The notes below the pieces were generated by a model. It was not told where the DNA came from. It saw only the letters and a list, made by a program, of their open reading frames with translations, and searched no databases. A program made the position numbers and the translations under genes. Below, piece by piece: positions 36,245-49,787 of a DNA stretch of 64,000 nucleotides (position 1 is its first letter; every line of letters begins with the position of its first letter). The stretch covers positions 1 to 64,000 of the forward strand of contig KV424017.1 of NCBI GenBank assembly GCA_001632435.1. The letters are read 5' to 3'. This DNA comes from Calocera cornea HHB12733. Its lineage: Eukaryota > Basidiomycota > Dacrymycetes > Dacrymycetales > Dacrymycetaceae.

Positions 36245-39200
36245 ATGGGCAAGCAGGGCACCCTCGACGCGTTCATGCGTCGAGACGCACAGGCCTCGTC
36301 TTCACCCACGAGGCCACCAACCAGGTCCAGGCGCGTATCCGACCCCGGATCTCCACCCCGCGACCTCAAGTCTGCAGAGTTCCGCGACGACACCGTCCCC
36401 GAGATCGTATCGCGTCGCGTCACCATCGAAACCCAGAAAGGCATGCCTCAGATCCGCCCACCGCAGAAGGCGATCGACTCGAGCGACCCGCCCATCAGCA
36501 ACATCAACGAAATGTTTAGGGACATCGTACGCCGCTTTGAGGGGTTCAAGAAAGTGCTCGAGTTCTTCAACGACAAGGAGGCGCTCAACGTCGCGACGAT
36601 GTGCTCCGGTACGGAGAGCCCGCTGCTCGCGCTCAAGATGCTGGACGAGGCCTGCCTCTCGCACCACGGCATCCGCCTGAGGACGAACCACATCTTCTCC
36701 TGTGAGATTGTCGACTACAAGCAGGCGTACATCGAGCGGAACTTTCAGCCAAAGATTCTTTTCAGAGACGTGTGCGAGCTGGGCAATGAGATGGCGTGAG
36801 CTTCCCCAGTGCTTCCTATCGCGTCTTCTTCATACTCACGCGTTTTACAGAGCTACTGCCTACGGCTCCCAGAAGAAGGTCCCGCTCGACTGCAACATCC
36901 TCATCGCCGGCACGTCGTGCGTCGATTACTCGACGCTCAACAACAAACAGCAAAAGATCACGGACAACGGCGAGTCCGGCCGCACCTTCCGCGGCATGAT
37001 GGGATACGTCCGCCGCGCGCGCCCTCAGATTATTATACTCGAGAACGTTTGCAAGGCGCCCTGGGACCAGATCGTCAAGTACTTCGGGGAGGAGGGCTAC
37101 GCGGCCACTCACAGCAAGTTCGACACGAAGGATTTTTACATCCCGCACACGCGTAACCGTGTCTATCTCGTCGCGTTCGACACGCGCAGGGGCGGCAACT
37201 CGACCTGGTCCATGCCGGAGAAGTGGAACACCAAGGTTCTGCAGATGAAGCGCCCCGCGTCCAGCCCGCTCGACGCATTCCTCCTCCCCGCAGACGACCC
37301 GCGCATCCACCGCGCGCGCGAGCGGCTCGTGCAGGAAGCTACGCAGGCGATGACCCGCGGGCGCGCGAGGATCGACTGGAGCCGGTGCGAGGGCAGGCAC
37401 CAGCGGGCGAGGCTCAGCGAGGAGCTCGGCATGAGGAGGCCGTTTACGTTCTGGGAGGAAGGTGCGCATACATAGGCTGCCTTGACTCCGACAGGTGCTG
37501 ACTAGACTGCAGGCGGAAAGTCGAACATGCCCGACTGGACGTGGCGCGACTGGGGCGTGAAGCAGGTCGAGCGCGTCTGGGATCTCGTTGACATCACCCT
37601 CCTCCGTTACGCGAAGGAAGACTGGGACCCGTCCTACAAGACGCTCGTCTGGAACCTCTCCCAGAACGTTGATCGCCAGATCGGCTCCGGCGTCGTCGGC
37701 GTCTCCCCCTGCCTCACCCCGTCGATGATCCCATACGTGACGAATCGCGGTGGGCCTATGACCGGCCTCGAGGCACTCGCGCTGCAGGGCCTGCCCATCA
37801 ACGAGCTCTTGCTGACGCGCGAGACGGAGGACAACCTCGCTGATCTTGCTGGAAACGCTATGACTTCTACTGTCGTTGGCAGCGCCACGATGGCCGCCCT
37901 CTACGTGGGCTTCAAGCACCTGTTCGAGGACCTAGCCGACAGGATGGACGTGGACGAGCAGGTCGAATCCGACAGCGTTGTCGAGGCGCATATAACTGGC
38001 GAAGAGCGGCTCGAGTCCAGGCCGCTTGACCTGGCAGCGACCAAGCAGGTTGACCTTAAGCGTATCCTCGACATGGCCCAGCGCAGCGCGCGTCTGTGCA
38101 TCTGCGAAGGTCGTGCGGGTATGACGGCAGCTACGATCAACCAGTGCAAGGACTGCCTGGTCACCTCCTGCGAACGCTGCGGCGGCCGTCCGACGCACAA
38201 CTATGCCCCCTACCAAATCGACCGCCTCTCCCCGGCGGAGTTCGAGAAGGAGCTCAAGGCTGCACTTCCGATGTGCCTCGAGTTCAGCTCGATCGAGGAC
38301 GATGATCTTGATTACGACGCGTTGACCGAGAACCTCAACCTGACCGACGAGGGCGCGATGAGCTCGAAACAGTTCCGGTTCTGGAAGGACACTGTTCTGC
38401 GAGCAACGAAGGACGTCTTGCGCTTCACTGCGCTCAAGCGCCAGGAGCTGTGGCTGGTCAACTACGAGAGCACCTCGGCACGGCTGGAGCTCGTCCTGCA
38501 CCCCACCTCGAAGCCTCAGTGGTTCCTGTACGCCAAGCCCGACCCGACGATGCCCGCCAACTCGCTTTGGCGGCATATGGTCGCCCAGCCCATCCTGCGC
38601 TCGACTGGGAAGAAGGGCTTCTTCGACGGCCGTTGGGAGTTCGGTCTCCCGGTCACCGAGAAGTTCGACGTTAAGGTCCAGGGCACCGGCAAGCTCGTTC
38701 CCAGCTTCAAGAGCGCCCTTGGTTTGCAGGGCGATTTTGCTGCCGAGCGGGTCTGGGATACGTGGAAGATCACGGTCGATCCCGACGATGTCGAGCGCCT
38801 GGACTTCGATATCTCCGGTACCTACAAGCTGCTGCCCGACTGCGGTGGCGCCGCTCGTTCGCTGCATCGCCGAGCTGAGAAGGCGCCTGACGGCCGGGAG
38901 TTCTTCTTCTTCCGCGATCCCAGACGGGGCGACTTCGCGAGAGAGGATTGTTATTCATTCTCTTCCACTCATCGGAGGCTCGACTTCGGCGAGGATCGGC
39001 CTGTGGTCGCTGCTCTCGCTAAAAGCTGGAGAGAGCACGATGGAAAGGGTGCCGAACGGGTTCACACTCATGTACGACGGGCATGGGTGAGGGCTGCGGG
39101 GCTCGAGATTCTGGTATGTTCTCACTTTCAGCCATGTCGGAAATCAAGGCTCATCTGCCTTGTAGCCTGTTCAAGAAGGAGATGCCTTGTTCGCGGTCCC

Positions 39201-42200
39201 CGCCGGCCCTCTGCCGGTCGATGTTGAGGTTGACCACTGCAAGACCGCAACAGCCATCCTCACTTGCCATGTTCCTATCAAGGACGAAATGGCTGATCAT
39301 TGGTCGAAGGATCGCTGGACAGAAGTCGACGTAATCCACGAGCGCGCAGTCTTCCAAAATTTGTCTTGGCTGACAGAGCGCGTCAAGGGCATCTCTGGAA
39401 TGCAAGATTGGAGCACTGTGCAGACCGCAGCTTGCGACCTGCCTGACTGTCCTGCCTGCGCGCCCAAGGCCCCGACGATCCAGTGGTACAAAGGACCAAC
39501 CAGGGGCGTCATTGCAATGGAAGATATGGTAGAGGCTGGACGATACGAGCAAGCCTTGAAACATCGTCCTTCCGCCTTCATCACCCAGTGCCGTCTGCTG
39601 GACGGGGTTGGCACCATGCGGATCGGTGTCAACTTTGCCAGCCTCGTTCATCGCGCCGCCGCCGCCCTATCCGACCGAGGCAACAAGGTCGTGCCTCAGC
39701 TCTCGTGGCGGTTGACTACGGAATACATGCCGGGCTCCATCCTCAACTTGCCCAAGTTCAGGCTATCAAGCAATCGCCACGATTCTGAATCGGCGCAGCC
39801 TCCGAACTTCAGGAAGAAGGTCCCACTCCGGACGGAGCAGCTGCGATCTCTGACCTGGATGCTACGTCAGGAAGCGAAGGACGCGCTACCGTTCATCGAG
39901 GAGGAAATCGCCGAGGCGGTTCTGGATCCACTCGGATGGCGTGCTGAGGGCCGTGCCACTCGTCCGGCCGTCATTCGTGGTGGTGTGCTTGCCGACCAAG
40001 TGGGCTACGGAAAGACGGCCATCACGCTAGGTTTGATCGACGCCGCTTCTCGGAGGCCAGCTCCCAAAGTGGACGCCGAGACTCTGCGGGGTCATATACC
40101 CGCCCTGCAAACCACTCTGTGCATCGTACCTCCACATCTGATTAAGCAGTGGCCATCTGAATTCAACAAGTTCATGAAGCCCGATGCGTACGAGATGGTG
40201 GTCATTGAGAGCATGGGACAGCTCAACAGGGTCACCGTCGAGCAGATACAAGAAGCGAAGATTGTGATCGTTGCGTCGAATCTTTTCCAATCCAAGGGGT
40301 ACGTGGAGCGACTGGGCATGTTGGCGGGGAAGTCTATGCCGCCGCCCCCGACAAACGGCTCCGGTCGACACTACCGAGCTCGGCTGGACCTCGCGTTGGC
40401 GGCTCTACGGCGCCAGATGGCTCGGCTAATGGGTGATGAAGGCGCTGCGGGCGTGTGGAGCAAGGTCAAAGCAGCTCAGCTCCGAGGTTAGCACCAGTCT
40501 CACTTGACAGTGGACATCTTTATTGATTGTCGTCAGGTCCTGATGTGGAAGAGGTATTTGTTCAGGGCAAGCGGCTCAGGGGGCAGAAGTACCGCGACGC
40601 CCATGCTCAAGATTCCACCGCGGAGCCCTCCAAGAAAGGAAAGAAGAGCGATCCTAGCTCGAGCCAGTCTCCCAAGAGGAGGCGGAGCGATGACGATTCG
40701 GACGACTCAGACGATGAACCGGCCAACAAGAAGACAAAGGCTGTTAAAGCTGTCGTCGATCCGTGGGGGTTGCAGACCGTCCGCGTGAAGAACGATTGGC
40801 GCCAACTCGTATGCCCACCTCTGGAGGCATTTCATTTCGAACGGCTGGTTGTGGACGAATACACGTATCTCAAGGATGCGCCACTCGCTGCCGTAACGAA
40901 GCTTAAATCAGCGTACCGCTGGGTGCTCTCCGGCACGCCGCCCGTTCATAACTTCGCTGCCGTTAAGACTATCGCCGTGTTCCTGAATGTGCATCTTGGA
41001 ATTGACGACGCCAGCGAGATGAAAACACCAGGCAGGGGGGGATCCCGAAACGAGCAGACGTGTAAGTGTCCCTCATTCTGTGTGCAACACGACCTTTAAC
41101 TCCGCAAACAGCGGTGGAGAAGTTCCACTCTTTCCGAGAGGTGCACACTGCTGCCTGGCATACGCGCCGTCATGAGAAAGCTCAGGAGTTCTTGGACCAC
41201 TTCGTTCGTCAGGTATGAGCTTCATTCTGGCGTCCGTGTTCCTGTCTGATTCGCTTATAGAACATAGCGGAAATTGACGAGATACCCTGTGAACAATCTC
41301 TGAAACTCGTTACTCTACCTGCAGCCGAGCGGGCAATTTATCTCGAGTTGCTACATCATCTCATGGCGCTCGACATGACCGTCAAGAAGGGCAAGAGAGG
41401 AGAGAGCGACCGAGACAAGCGCTTGGCCCAGTCTCTCGGAGAGAGCGAGTAAGTGAAAGCAAGCATCATAGTAATCTGCTGTCTGACCCATCTGATAGCT
41501 CTGCCGAGGAGGCGCTCCTGAAACGCTGCTCCCATTTCGACCTCGACATGGACGGTATATCGCTGGACAAGCCACACAAGAACGCGGGGAAGAAGGGCAG
41601 GAAAAGCGATGAAGACTCCGAACCCGAAAGTGACGAAGCTGCGGATGAAGACGACGAGGATGCTGACAGCGACGTGGTGGTAATCACACCTGGCACCTCC
41701 AAGAAAGATCGCAACCGAAGCGACAATGCCCTGCAAGCTTGCGACATTATCGTGCGGGACCGGACCGAGCAGCGGGCTGACTGCGAGCGAGACCTGAAGG
41801 AGAAGATCAGGGAGGCGATAGCTCTCGAAGCCAAGATTGGGCACATCGAAGAGGACGGTCCGTTCCGGGCCTGGATCAGAGGCTGTCAGGAGCGCGGTGT
41901 CAGCGATACCGATGCATCTGCATTGATTCGGAAACTCATTCGCGAAGCAACGTCGAAGACGCCTGCGACTCCGAACGGCAAGCTGACAACGCGCGATCCC
42001 AACGTGAACTCCTCCCCATCGTTCTTCCAAAAGGGATACCAGGTAGAGCCGAGTCAGAACCGCAAGCCGAGTAAGACGGCGAAGTCGAACAAGAAAGAGA
42101 ACGTGGCGCCGAAGAAGCCCAAAAAAGCCAAGGACGACGACGAGGACGATGATGATGATGACGAAGATGAGGATGGCGGTGGGCAGAAGAAAAAGACCGC

Positions 42201-45509: not shown

Positions 45510-46538
45510 TCACGCCGCCGCTGTCTCCACGGTGGTCATCGGCGTTCCCCACGCATATAGGTCATACCCCTCCTTGTACCGAATTCCCGGCTCGCGCTCG
45601 AACGTTGGGGGCCAAATTTTCCTGCGATGGGCGTAGTAATCATCATGCTGATCCCCACCCTCCGAGATAGCGTTGTAAGTGGCGTATATGGCTGCCCGCC
45701 CATACGGAGAGTTGTTCGGTCCAGAGCGGTGGGCAAGGAACGACCCGAAGACGAGCATGTCGCCTGCACCGGGGTGTCAGCCTCGTGTCCGCCGACCCGT
45801 CCGACCGGGGCCACGCACCTGTATCAAGCGGCACCGGCGCCCACTGGCGTGCGGCTTCCCACTCTTTTGTGATCGTGTGATCCTGGTTGAGCGGGATGTC
45901 GCGAATCAGATGCGAACCGGGGACGACTTCGAGGCAGCCGTTCTCCGCCGTGGCCGGCTCTACGGCGATGAGGATCGTGAGATGCTTGAGCGCGGCGATA
46001 TGCTGGTACGCCGGCGAGTCGGTGTGCGGGTCGAAGCCCCCGCCGCCGGGAGACTTGTAGTTGATCTTTTCCTGAGGTAGACGGGTTACCGAAATAGCAC
46101 CTAGTCGTGGGCGGGAATGTGACGCACCTTGAAGAGCACCATCTCTTCTCCCGCCAGCTGTGCCAACATCTCGCGCAGTCGTCGACCACGAAGCAGTGTG
46201 CCGAAGCCTTGGTGGAAGTTGGCATAGTTCTCGGTGCGTGTGAGGAATCGGCGGCCGTATCTGTCGACCTCTTCATACGGCATGTGTGCGCCGGGTGTGT
46301 TGGGCCATCCCTACTTGGGGGTAGATTGTGTTAGAGAGAAACACGAGATAGAAGCTGGACTGCTTCTAGCCTGGAGACGCACCTTGACTTCCGCCGTCCA
46401 TGTTATCAGATCCGCTTGTTCGCGCTCGTCGAGGAGCCCGCGAAGGACGAGGTAGCCGCTCTGGGCAAAGAATGCCTTCTGTTCCTCGGACAGCTGGAGC
46501 ACGGCGTCGTTCGGGGTTGTGCTCGCCGCGCTCGTCAT
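45510..46538 (-). CDS. PhyH-type Fe(II)/2-oxoglutarate oxygenase, paralogue 1 (PhnY/TmpA-like)
   Basis: Four exons (46538-46383, 46310-46128, 46071-45819, 45763-45510) give 281 aa, normal for the family. The double-stranded beta-helix iron site is complete: H129 and D131 in FDPHTD, distal H209 in FLAHRSG, and R220 as probable 2-oxoglutarate anchor. KINYKSPGGGGF and ENGCLEVVPGSH are family landmarks. Its closest relatives, as I recall them, are bacterial PhyH enzymes of the PhnY/TmpA group, which hydroxylate the carbon next to phosphorus in aminoethylphosphonates. A second paralogue and a PhnZ-like gene follow at 47180-49787, which supports that reading, although other substrates are possible. 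An upstream Met at 46556 would add six residues. Confidence 0.85.
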
Positions 46539-47179
46539 CGTGATACCGTGCCGCAAAGCTTAGCCGGGCAATGGTGCAAACTAAATGGCGCACTGTGCGC
46601 GTGTCGGCGACGGCATCTCGGACGAGCTCGATGAGGAAGGGAGGGCCCGGGGCGACCTTTGCCGTGGGGAAACCCGCTGCGGGCGCTGTCAACGGCCTGC
46701 GTTCGACCCCTTCGCCTCGTATGTTCCTCTCTTCGCCATTCAATCGACCACGCCAAGTCTCGTAACGCCGCGGGAGCCTATATATGGTCATCGTTCGCCA
46801 GCATGCTGGTTCTGGAGGACAGTGCCCCGGATCACCTCCGGTTCCTCCTATGCCACTATCCATGATGCAGGGTGAGGTAGCATGCGCAACAGCACGAGGC
46901 GGCAGCATTGCCATCAGCGCAACCACCCGCCTGTCCGGCAAGACCGGCGGCAGTGTATGGCACTGAGTGACAGGAACAAGAACAGTGGTGTATTCATATG
47001 GAGAAGGGCAGAATACGGCTAAGCAGATTGGCTGTGTGCCGCCCTTTGCCGCTCGTGCAAGATTCGCAAAATGTATTGTGCGAGTGTATTGATGGCTAAC
47101 GCCATAAACGTGCTGGATGATATCGATGATGTCCGCGCTGCAGGCCGTGGCTCCCAGTCCCGCTGGGAGTATCCACACC
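46539..47179. other. Intergenic between the two oxygenase paralogues
   Basis: 640 nt containing the promoter of paralogue 1 and the 3' end of paralogue 2. A TATATA word lies near 46779-46785, about 240 nt upstream of the start. A long minus frame here (46366-47178) overlaps the first exon of paralogue 1 in another frame and is not credible. Confidence 0.4.
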
Positions 47180-48190
47180 CTATGCGGCGCCCTCCACCGT
47201 AATCATCGGCGTGCCCCAGGCGTACCTGTCTCTCCCCTCGGTATAACTCTTCCCCACCTCGCGCTCGAACGTGGCCGGCCACTCTGCGCGACGATGTTTG
47301 TAATACTCATGGCGCCGATCGCCGCCCTCCCGGATCGGATTGAACGTGGCGTACAGCATGGCCCGTCCCAGCTTAGAGTCATTGTTCGCGGAGCGGTGCA
47401 CGAGGAGGGAGCTGAAGATGAAGATATCGCCTGAAGCGTGCATCATCAGTGCGTGGTCTATCGCTGGTTAATGAGGGACGCAATCTTACCAGTGTCCAGC
47501 TCAACGGGAACCCAGTCCTGCTTCGCGCACCAGTCGTCATCGATGCACTGGTCTGGCCTTGTGGGAATATCGCTCAGAAGATGCGACCCAGGGACGACTT
47601 CGACACAACCGTTCTCCAGCTTCGCCGGCTCCACGGCCATGGCCAGGGATTGGAAACTGTCCGGGCCGATATGCTGATAAGAAGGCGCGTCCGTGTGCGC
47701 GGGGAAGCCGCCGCCGCCGGGCGACTTGTACACGATCTTTTCCTGATGGAATAACGAGCTGCGCTCAGAATACCATATGCCCTCATGTAAAGCCGGACTT
47801 GCCTTGAACAGCACCATCGGCTTGCCGGTCAGTTCCTCGACCAGTTTGGCAAGTACGTTACTGCGCAACAGCTGACCGAGCTGCTTATGGTAATCGACAA
47901 AGTTTTCCGTGATGGTGAGTATCCGATTGCCATTGCGGTCTACCTCTTCATAGTGCATGTGACGATTTGGTATATTTGGCCAGTTCTGCAATAGGCGCGT
48001 AAGGGGACTACTTGTTGAGCAGTAGACATCGGTGAAGAGGACGTACCTTGACCTCCATTACCGAGTTGATGAGGCCGTCTCTCTCCACCTGGGTGAAGCG
48101 ATTGCGCAGGATCACATAGCCATCCTTTTGGAAGGATGCTTTGAGGTTGGCGGGAAGATGCCAGTTGGAGATGCGCGAGAAGATAGTCAT
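47180..48190 (-). CDS. PhyH-type Fe(II)/2-oxoglutarate oxygenase, paralogue 2 (PhnY/TmpA-like)
   Basis: Four exons (48190-48047, 47985-47803, 47742-47490, 47430-47180), 276 aa. Exons 2 and 3 have exactly the same lengths (183 and 253 nt) as in paralogue 1, so the pair arose by tandem duplication. The iron site is H125 and D127 (FPAHTD) and H205 (LVHRSA), with R216 as the likely 2-oxoglutarate contact, so both copies look active. Intron 2 (47743-47802, 60 nt) begins GCAAGT and ends CAG, a GC-AG intron; it is in-frame and stop-free, and its position matches a GT-AG intron in paralogue 1. The gene is divergent from the PhnZ-like gene, sharing about 615 nt of promoter. It is the best candidate partner for that enzyme. 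Confidence 0.87.
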
Positions 48191-48805
48191 ACTCGATCGT
48201 CTGGATGAGGATCATAGCTCTCAAAACGAGTTGCCTTTATACCCTTGAGGCGACACGGTAGAGAGCGTTATTGCGAGTGGAGGCGGCGAAGCGGCGAGCC
48301 ATCAGAAGGGTGAGAGATGGGCATCGACAGAACACAGGATTCATGTAAAGCGCCGGAGCGCACATACAGCGGCAATCCGTACGCATACTCCATCTGCATC
48401 TCCTGTCCGTCTCTGAGCATAGTCCATTTCGGGCAGTCCGCCGCGGCGGTCCGTCCGCTTTCCGCGCTGCGTGGTGTCTTCGGCGCACAGATGTTTGATG
48501 AGATAGACGGAAAGAAGACGCATCAGCAGATCGCACGGCGCCTCAGAGGGCAGAGGAGAGCAGCGAGATCGAAAGTCATCAGGACAGGAGCCATCAGCAA
48601 TTCAGACGTTGTAGGCATAGTGCGGGACATGAGGTGACAGCGCAACCCAAGGAGAATCCAGGGCGCACGGTCATCGGGCGCGCAACGCGGACCGCGTAAG
48701 CAAATGTCAGTGCCCGGACACCACGCCTCATCGATCAACGACGGCTCAGCACACCATAAATATTTCACCCTCTCCCTTGATCAGCTTCTCCCCGGCGTCC
48801 GGAAA
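48191..48805. promoter_or_regulatory. Bidirectional promoter of the oxygenase/PhnZ-like pair
   Basis: A divergent 615-nt interval between the start codons of PhyH paralogue 2 (minus) and the PhnZ-like gene (plus). Each side has a TATA-like element about 45-50 nt from its start codon: TATAAA at 48241-48236 on the minus strand and ATAAATA at 48756-48762 on the plus strand. Such close TATA-to-ATG spacing suggests short leaders. Co-regulation is an inference. Confidence 0.5.
48236..48241 (-). promoter_or_regulatory. TATA box of PhyH paralogue 2
   Basis: TATAAA within GGGTATAAAGGC on the minus strand, 46-51 nt upstream of the start codon at 48190. Confidence 0.5.
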
Positions 48806-49787
48806 ATGACCACGGACGCTCCGCAACATACAGTGGATCATCTATTTCACCTTCTCATCAGCCAAGGCGATGCCGATTACATCGGCGAAAAAGTATCCCA
48901 GCTTCAGCATTGCCTGCAGGCCGCCCATCTCGCCCAATCGGCAGGTTTGTCCACCCTTTCCGTATCTTATGTCACGCGGAAGATGCCTATCTAATACAAT
49001 TCTCCCTTACGACATTCTCCTTCTATCGCCACTTCTATACAATCCATGTCACAGGCTCTGATGAAGAAAGTGCGTATGGCTGTTCTTCTTTGCCTGTCCA
49101 CCAAGTCGGGTTGCGAGTTGACATCGCTTATCTATTCGCTCCCTCCTTGCCGCTTCCCTGCCGCGTTCTTCCTTGTCTTCGATCATGGGATTCACCTTCC
49201 TCCAGCGATTCTCGCAGCCCTGCTGCACGATATCGGGCAATTCCTACCGGAAGACGCGGCCGAGGCGATGATGACCGAACAGGGGTCCGTGGGGCGTCAG
49301 GGGCACGAACAGCTGGGCGCAACTTACCTTGCCGAACTTGGCTTCTCGCGCAAGGTGCGTTCTCATCGAGTCATTCTTTCCCGTCCTGTTCCGCATATTT
49401 GATATTCCTGTAAAGTCTGTTTGCTGCTTGCCGAATCTAACGCCGGGTTATAGGTGTGCGACCTGGTGGGAGCACACGTTGTGGCAAAGCGATACCTGAC
49501 GGCGATCGACAAGTCCTATTATGACGGATTGAGTGATGCCAGCAGGATGAGTTTGCGCTTCCAGGTGCTGCTTCCTGCCGGATTTCTGAAATTCGGGCTT
49601 ATCGGTTGCGCAGGGCGGCCCATTCACGAGTCCCGAGGTAGAAGACTTCGAGCGCGACCCCATTTTCCCGGCCAAAGTCGCGCTGCGCAAATGGGACGAT
49701 CAAGCCAAGGTTGTCGGCCTCGTTGTCCCGGAGGTCGATGCGTACCGTCCGATGGCCTTGCGGCATCTGCTTCTTCAGTCTTCGTGA
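48806..49787 (+). CDS. PhnZ-like HD-domain di-iron oxygenase
   Basis: Five exons (48806-48944, 49055-49069, 49206-49354, 49454-49564, 49614-49787) encode 195 aa, the length of bacterial PhnZ. PhnZ uses a mixed-valent di-iron centre and O2 to cleave the C-P bond of 1-hydroxy-2-aminoethylphosphonate. Candidate ligands are spaced almost as in PhnZ as I remember it: H35 (SQLQH), H59-D60 (LLHDIG), H85 (RQGHEQ), H109 (GAHVVAKRYL) and D166 (KWDD), with Y25 and E28 (DYIGE) in the substrate-gating positions. The C-terminal signature runs through LRFQGGPFTSPEV, then RKWDDQAKV and AYRP. Introns 1-3 are longer (110, 136 and 99 nt) than elsewhere, and exon 2 is only 15 nt. Its divergent neighbour is a PhnY/TmpA-like oxygenase. 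Natural substrate unproven; a MIOX-like or phosphohydrolase role is less likely. Confidence 0.88.

What the first reader, a model, noticed from the sequence alone, without database searches (positions are those of the whole stretch)
45510..49787. Candidate fungal phosphonate-degradation cluster: two PhnY/TmpA-like oxygenases with a PhnZ-like HD oxygenase
Seen: two PhyH-type oxygenases with intact HxD...H iron sites sit beside a 195-aa HD protein whose Tyr, Glu, His and Asp positions (25, 28, 35, 59/60, 85, 109, 166) track those of bacterial PhnZ. One oxygenase is divergent from it across a shared promoter. Known: PhnY/PhnZ and TmpA/TmpB act in series to hydroxylate and oxidatively cleave aminoethylphosphonates. 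Inferred: the fungus may use this route to obtain phosphate from phosphonates, possibly with a second oxygenase of different substrate range. I am not aware of a described eukaryotic cluster of this kind.
Basis: partly seen in the sequence, partly recalled or inferred. Interest (0 to 1): 0.88.

Follow-up and report, generated by a model that had tools for sequence, protein, structure and literature searches.

The report
Fungal phosphonate-cleaving gene cluster, unfused
This jelly-fungus genome carries three neighbouring genes that look like a split version of a known fungal enzyme that cuts carbon-phosphorus bonds, plus an extra, altered copy of its first-step enzyme that may handle a different compound.

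Summary
Window 45510-49787 holds three intact, intron-bearing genes: two tandem PhyH-type 2-oxoglutarate/Fe oxygenases (OxA, OxB; 56% identical, all three intron positions shared) and a divergent 195-aa HD-domain protein with the PhnZ diiron and YxxE residues. The window is Calocera cornea (Dacrymycetes).

Sequence scores and the preferred tree branches put the HD protein with PhnZ rather than TmpB, although an AU test does not exclude TmpB. The oxygenases are PhnY-like. The most likely function is hydroxylation of an aminoalkylphosphonate, then oxidative C-P cleavage to phosphate.

What seems new is the unfused cluster, linked in several other fungi; fungal fusions do not form one clade. There is also a Dacrymycete-specific second hydroxylase, OxB. 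It keeps the iron and 2OG ligands but has Val where 136 of 139 homologues have Asn, and Ile/Leu at a mostly conserved Arg. The Asn aligns with N101 of proline hydroxylase H11. I infer a changed substrate for OxB. No activity has been tested.

The parts
45510..46538 (-). OxA: PhnY-type PhyH-fold Fe(II)/2OG hydroxylase, 281 aa; exons 46383-46538, 46128-46310, 45819-46071, 45510-45763
   Evidence: gene model; 100% to P0121 Calocera cornea; NF052437 methylphosphonate hydroxylase 186 bits, curated cut-off 500; PhyH 1.4e-27
47180..48190 (-). OxB: tandem paralogue of OxA, 276 aa; exons 48047-48190, 47803-47985, 47490-47742, 47180-47430; second intron is GC-AG
   Evidence: gene model; 56% to OxA; Dacrymycete-specific duplication, 100/99; V at the position homologous to OxA N117
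48191..48805 (.). 615-bp divergent intergenic region (shared promoter) between OxB and HD
   Evidence: no CACGTG, CACGT or GATAA on either strand
48806..49787 (+). HD: PhnZ-type diiron C-P cleaving oxygenase, 195 aa; exons 48806-48944, 49055-49069, 49206-49354, 49454-49564, 49614-49787
   Evidence: identical to P0001; 4mlm PhnZ 1e-35 with a 190-aa model lacking the microexon; TIGR03276 191 bits with the full model, curated cut-off 214.6; the only gene of this family found in the genome search

Best explanation
The cluster is the unfused form of the fungal PhnY-PhnZ (PhoF-type) oxidative phosphonate pathway. OxA hydroxylates C1 of an aminoalkylphosphonate (most likely 2-aminoethylphosphonate) using Fe(II), 2-oxoglutarate and O2, giving the (R)-1-hydroxy compound. 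The HD protein, a mixed-valent diiron oxygenase, then cleaves the C-P bond, releasing phosphate and glycine (or the matching amino acid). OxB is a Dacrymycete-specific duplicate of OxA, kept and fast-evolving, that most likely feeds the same HD enzyme from a different, perhaps less polar, substrate. Shown by sequence: gene structures, family resemblance, catalytic residues, linkage and duplication. Inferred: substrates, order of steps, OxB's altered specificity, and use for phosphate supply.
For: PhnZ crystal sequences are the best PDB matches (1e-35; profile 5.9e-64). The diiron ligands and the YxxE loop described for PhnZ/TmpB (PMC8177086, passages) are invariant in 23 of 23 rows. OxA and HD are 53% and 49% identical to the two halves of a Fonsecaea pedrosoi fusion (P0167), from the genus of the characterised PhoF (PMC10574752). 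Comparing all 120 listed HD rows with the 122 listed non-fused PhyH rows, 10 contig lengths are shared, one of them (2109, from different sources) probably by chance; locus tags are consecutive in two Marasmius. OxA/OxB duplication 100/99 and OxB clade 100/100. N117 is N in 136 of 139 rows and V in the 3 OxB orthologues.
Against: No biochemical or expression data. The curated NCBIfam cut-offs are not reached (HD 191 of 214.6; OxA 186 of 500); two Fonsecaea fusions also miss them (173 and 177; 169 and 165). No CACGTG or GATAA site in the shared promoter. No transporter found beside it, in a partial scan of 20 of 107 ORFs. The PhnZ rather than TmpB placement is not exclusive by AU test (p 0.22), and in the rebuilt tree the fungal HD rows are not one clade.
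Confidence: 0.82

Rival explanations
1. OxB is simply a redundant or decaying copy of OxA with the same substrate, kept by dosage or on its way to loss.
For: OxB orthologues diverge faster: window OxB is 65% to Dacryopinax and 71% to C. viscosa, while OxA is 85% to Dacryopinax. Marasmius sp. AFHP31 also has two tandem copies.
Against: The open frame is intact once a GC-AG intron is removed, and the iron and 2OG ligands checked are kept in all 3 OxB orthologues. C. viscosa has OxB while no OxA of it appears among the 120 listed of 652 hits. Decay would not be expected to leave the same Val in all three.
Confidence: 0.25
2. OxB has lost 2-oxoglutarate-dependent phosphonate chemistry and acts on a non-phosphonate substrate, with linkage to HD only historical.
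For: N117V and R77I/L change residues kept in 136 and 122 of 139 homologues.
Against: S211, R220 and the iron triad are intact; OxB and HD share a contig length in C. viscosa and Dacryopinax; OxB and its two orthologues still match the methylphosphonate hydroxylase model at 156-167 bits.
Confidence: 0.15
3. The pair is a methylphosphonate pathway like Gimesia PhnY/PhnZ, yielding formate and phosphate.
For: The best hydroxylase model is the methylphosphonate hydroxylase NF052437, and the second HD model is the hydroxymethylphosphonate dioxygenase NF052439.
Against: Both lie far below the curated cut-offs (186 of 500; 159 of 300). Two Fonsecaea fusions, from the genus of aminophosphonate-acting PhoF, give the same ranking. 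E28, which contacts the substrate amine in PhnZ (PMC8177086), is invariant, although the Gimesia enzyme also accepts hydroxyaminoethylphosphonate (PMC10574752), so this is weak.
Confidence: 0.12
4. The HD protein is an ordinary metal-dependent phosphohydrolase, as some annotations say, unrelated to C-P cleavage.
For: A few database names read 'HD phosphohydrolase' or similar (P0014, P0031, P0064, P0103).
Against: The YxxE loop and the H..HD..H..H..D oxygenase pattern are present; the PhnZ match is 1e-35.
Confidence: 0.03

Closest known systems
PhoF, fused PhnY-PhnZ of Fonsecaea multimorphosa (cited in review PMC10574752, passages read; the original 2022 paper is not held and was not read)
   Same: Same two enzymes in a fungus; OxA 53% and HD 49% identical to the matching halves of a Fonsecaea pedrosoi fusion
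   Different: Here the enzymes are separate, divergently transcribed genes, with a second hydroxylase (OxB). The PhoF-type fusions in Chaetothyriales and Tremellomycetes do not form one clade (AU p 0.0003 on PhyH; 0.015 on HD)
Bacterial PhnY/PhnZ (bacterium HF130_AEPn_1; PhnZ structures 4mlm, 4n6w, 4n71)
   Same: HD is closest to PhnZ in the PDB and keeps the diiron ligands and YxxE loop
   Different: Eukaryotic, intron-bearing and with two hydroxylases; LHDLGH in PhnZ reads LHDIGQ here.
TmpA/TmpB of Leisingera caerulea (6npa)
   Same: Same reaction logic; TmpB is a homologue (1.5e-25)
   Different: TmpB scores lower than PhnZ and groups with four bacterial rows, 100/97, though a fungi-plus-TmpB clade is not rejected; the oxygenases here are PhyH/PhnY-type. 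That TmpA is of a different 2OG family is recalled, not tested
Gimesia maris methylphosphonate pathway (NF052437, NF052439)
   Same: Best-named NCBIfam hydroxylase model
   Different: Scores are far below the cut-offs, as for the two Fonsecaea fusions

Membership tests
PhnZ-type HD oxygenase (Phn-HD) | Diiron ligands H..HD..H..H..D | tested here: met
   H35, H59, D60, H85, H109, D166 invariant in 23 of 23 rows
PhnZ-type HD oxygenase (Phn-HD) | YxxE substrate loop | tested here: met
   Y25 and E28 invariant in 23 of 23 rows; loop described in PMC8177086
PhnZ-type HD oxygenase (Phn-HD) | Reaches NCBIfam TIGR03276 curated cut-off (214.6 bits) | tested here: not met
   191.3 bits. Two Fonsecaea fusions also miss it (173.4, 176.8), so I do not file it as that NCBI equivalog
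PhnZ-type HD oxygenase (Phn-HD) | Groups with PhnZ rather than TmpB in a tree | tested here: inconclusive
   PhnZ-side branch supported, 99/96 and 100/98; but forcing the fungi with TmpB is not rejected (AU p 0.22)
PhnY-type hydroxylase | Fe triad and 2OG Ser/Arg of PhyH enzymes | tested here: met
   H129, D131, H209, S211, R220 in OxA and the equivalents in 3 OxB rows; same spacing as EctD H146/D148/H248/S250 (PMC2871039 passages)
PhnY-type hydroxylase | Reaches NF052437 curated cut-off (500 bits) | tested here: not met
   186 and 156 bits; it is therefore not filed as a methylphosphonate hydroxylase
PhoF-type pathway | Hydroxylase and HD oxygenase fused in one polypeptide | tested here: not met
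   Separate genes on opposite strands; it probably works like PhoF but is not a PhoF
PhoF-type pathway | Phosphate release from aminoalkylphosphonates | not testable with these tools
   needs an enzyme assay

The most novel reading that the evidence does not exclude
Dacrymycetes evolved a two-input phosphonate pathway: one C-P cleaving HD oxygenase fed by two diverged hydroxylases. In OxB, two changes at likely pocket positions (Asn to Val at the H11 N101/EctD N133 position, and Arg to Ile/Leu) opened a substrate class, such as a longer or N-alkylated phosphonate, that no characterised PhnY, TmpA or PhoF handles.
Probability: 0.33. Interest if true: 0.62.

Novelty: new variant of a known kind. 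Interest (0 to 1): 0.45.

Why it matters
It suggests that the oxidative C-P cleavage route is widespread in fungi, well beyond one pathogen genus: homologues of the HD gene appear in Basidiomycota, Ascomycota, Coemansia and Podila. The route exists as linked genes in some lineages and as fusions that do not form one clade in others. Calocera and its relatives offer non-pathogenic material to test fungal phosphonate use, and OxB gives a natural experiment on which residues set substrate choice in PhnY-type hydroxylases.

Tried and rejected
A four-exon HD model (190 aa) was rejected after P0001 revealed a 15-nt microexon. In the first HD tree two fused metagenomic proteins (P0238, P0250) were cut at the wrong domain; they were recut and the tree rebuilt. 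In the rebuilt tree the fungi are not one clade, though their monophyly is not rejected (AU p 0.454), so I make no claim on the direction of transfer. The Marasmius fusions (P0143, P0171) lack residues at the join of the two halves and may be merged gene models; I left them out of the fusion tests after seeing the trees, so those p-values are not for a group fixed beforehand. Promoter motifs: none found. Other phosphonate genes in the genome: phosphonatase 29 bits and PEP mutase 23.5 bits, both below cut-off; PhnA none. These searches ignore introns. Rfam scan of the window: no match. No description of an unfused fungal cluster turned up in the search listings (open-licence PMC only). What N133 and N101 do in EctD and H11 was sought and not found in held papers.

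Full report
The window lies in the genome of the jelly fungus Calocera cornea HHB12733: OxA is 100% identical to P0121 and HD is identical to P0001, both on a 116,241-bp contig. The assembly held is 32.1 Mb in 302 contigs.

Gene structures. OxA and OxB are each four-exon genes on the minus strand. Their introns fall at the same three places with the same phases (exon lengths 156/183/253/254 and 144/183/253/251, from the coordinates), so the duplication followed intron gain and the genes look like native fungal genes rather than bacterial contamination. OxB's second intron uses GC-AG. The public annotation P0158 keeps that intron as 20 extra residues in the middle of the conserved FKEKI strand. 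HD has five exons, one of 15 nt. The left neighbour is an M24 peptidase. To the right, no Pfam domain was found in the 13 stretches scanned there (20 of 107 stop-free stretches of 100 aa or more were scanned in all, from 25-45.5 kb and beyond 49.7 kb).

Resemblance of HD. The closest solved structures are PhnZ (1e-35) and then TmpB (1.5e-25); with a profile of 23 homologues, 218 against 168 bits. NCBIfam gives Phn-HD 191 bits, hydroxymethylphosphonate dioxygenase 159 and TmpB 141, each below its curated cut-off. The diiron ligands and the YxxE loop are invariant. In the first tree (76 rows, two of them badly cut) 46 fungal rows form one clade (96/97) inside a PhnZ-side group (99/96), and TmpB lies outside with four bacterial rows (100/97). 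In the rebuilt tree the PhnZ-side branch is 100/98, but the fungi are split around the bacterial PhnZ rows. Fungal monophyly is not rejected (p 0.454), nor is a fungi-plus-TmpB clade (p 0.22). The placement with PhnZ is therefore favoured but not proven.

Linkage. Comparing the longest-contig lengths of all 120 listed HD rows with the 122 listed non-fused PhyH rows, 10 lengths are shared: C. cornea, C. viscosa, Dacryopinax, Ramaria, Dothistroma, two Marasmius, two metagenomic contigs, and one 2109-bp coincidence between different sources that I discount. In the two Marasmius the locus tags are consecutive (PQX77_002159-002161; PM082_006624-006625). The other HD rows show no shared length, perhaps in part because both lists are cut at 120.

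Prior art. A 2023 review (PMC10574752; passages read) states that a fourth version of the pathway was found in Fonsecaea multimorphosa as the fused enzyme PhoF, acting on 2-aminoethyl- and 3-aminopropylphosphonate. The original paper is not held. OxA is 53% and HD 49% identical to the halves of a F. pedrosoi fusion. That this fusion is the orthologue of PhoF is inferred from genus and architecture. The pathway in fungi is therefore known, while an unfused cluster was not seen in the search listings.

Fusion history. Fusions of Chaetothyriales and Tremellomycetes (7 rows; two Marasmius fusions left out as possible merged gene models) do not form one clade: held together, p-AU is 0.0003 on the PhyH tree and 0.015 on the HD tree. 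Fusion therefore happened at least twice, or was once ancestral and split repeatedly; the trees cannot tell these apart. A different arrangement, with HD first, occurs in a gammaproteobacterial MAG (L044) and two metagenomic proteins, which group at 99/98.

OxB. The OxA/OxB split is a Dacrymycete duplication (100/99), with a long OxB stem (0.67). At 16 positions none of the three OxB orthologues has the residue that at least 70% of 37 other rows carry. The most striking is N117: N in 136 of 139 homologues, V in exactly the three OxB rows. R77 is R in 122 of 139 (4 gaps), and I/L/L in OxB; ten other rows also lack the Arg, so that change is less specific. The alignments put N117 at N133 of EctD (3emr) and N101 of proline hydroxylase H11 (numbering of chain 7e01); an H11-N101I mutant has been crystallised (7dt0, title). 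N117 alternates with K113, K115 and K119 on one predicted strand (109-119), so it probably faces the same side as they do (inference). The Fe and 2OG ligands checked are intact in OxB. I read this as retained activity with changed substrate choice; no assay supports it yet.

Mechanism proposed: OxA (and OxB on its own substrate) C1-hydroxylates a phosphonate, and HD cleaves the C-P bond, releasing phosphate. Family knowledge for these steps is from PMC8177086 and PMC10574752 (passages). Uptake and regulation are unknown: no CACGTG or GATAA site on either strand of the 615-bp shared promoter, and no transporter seen in a partial scan.

Noticed in passing
47743-47802: OxB's second intron is GC-AG; the public protein P0158 (296 aa) retains it as a 20-residue insert in the core strand, so the database entry is probably misannotated.
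   Followed up: yes
49055-49069: A 15-nt microexon in the HD gene encodes part of the GSDEET loop.
   Followed up: yes
L044:3440-4846: A gammaproteobacterial MAG encodes an HD-first fusion (PhnZ-like then PhnY-like), the reverse order of the fungal fusions; two metagenomic proteins (P0238, P0250) share it and group with it at 99/98.
   Followed up: partly
L042:5140-6666 and L050:5192-6660: Legionella brunensis and L. parisiensis carry adjacent PhnY-like and PhnZ-like genes.
   Followed up: no
L011-L090: Of the 80 bacterial HD loci kept (best of 589, flanks up to 6 kb, some shorter), 3 have a PhnY-like PhyH match and 77 show none; which hydroxylase, if any, serves those 77 was not examined.
   Followed up: no
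L100, L101: Plasmids of Rhodococcus sp. NJ-530 and Dietzia sp. carry a PhyH-HD gene pair next to a GPR1/FUN34/YaaH transporter, a second 2OG oxygenase and a methionine synthase-like gene.
   Followed up: no
P0023, P0035 (protein ids, tree): Two Mycena HD proteins group (99/97) with two Tremellomycete sequences, one of them fused (P0154), hinting at gene transfer or a fusion later split.
   Followed up: no
P0052 (protein id): A Tremellales HD protein starts with about 40 residues that resemble, by eye, the N-terminus of the PhyH half; possibly a broken or misannotated fusion gene.
   Followed up: no
39166-40488: A stop-free stretch matches the SNF2-related helicase domain (1.2e-11); a downstream stretch at 42629-43405 matches Helicase_C weakly, below cut-off.
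   Followed up: no
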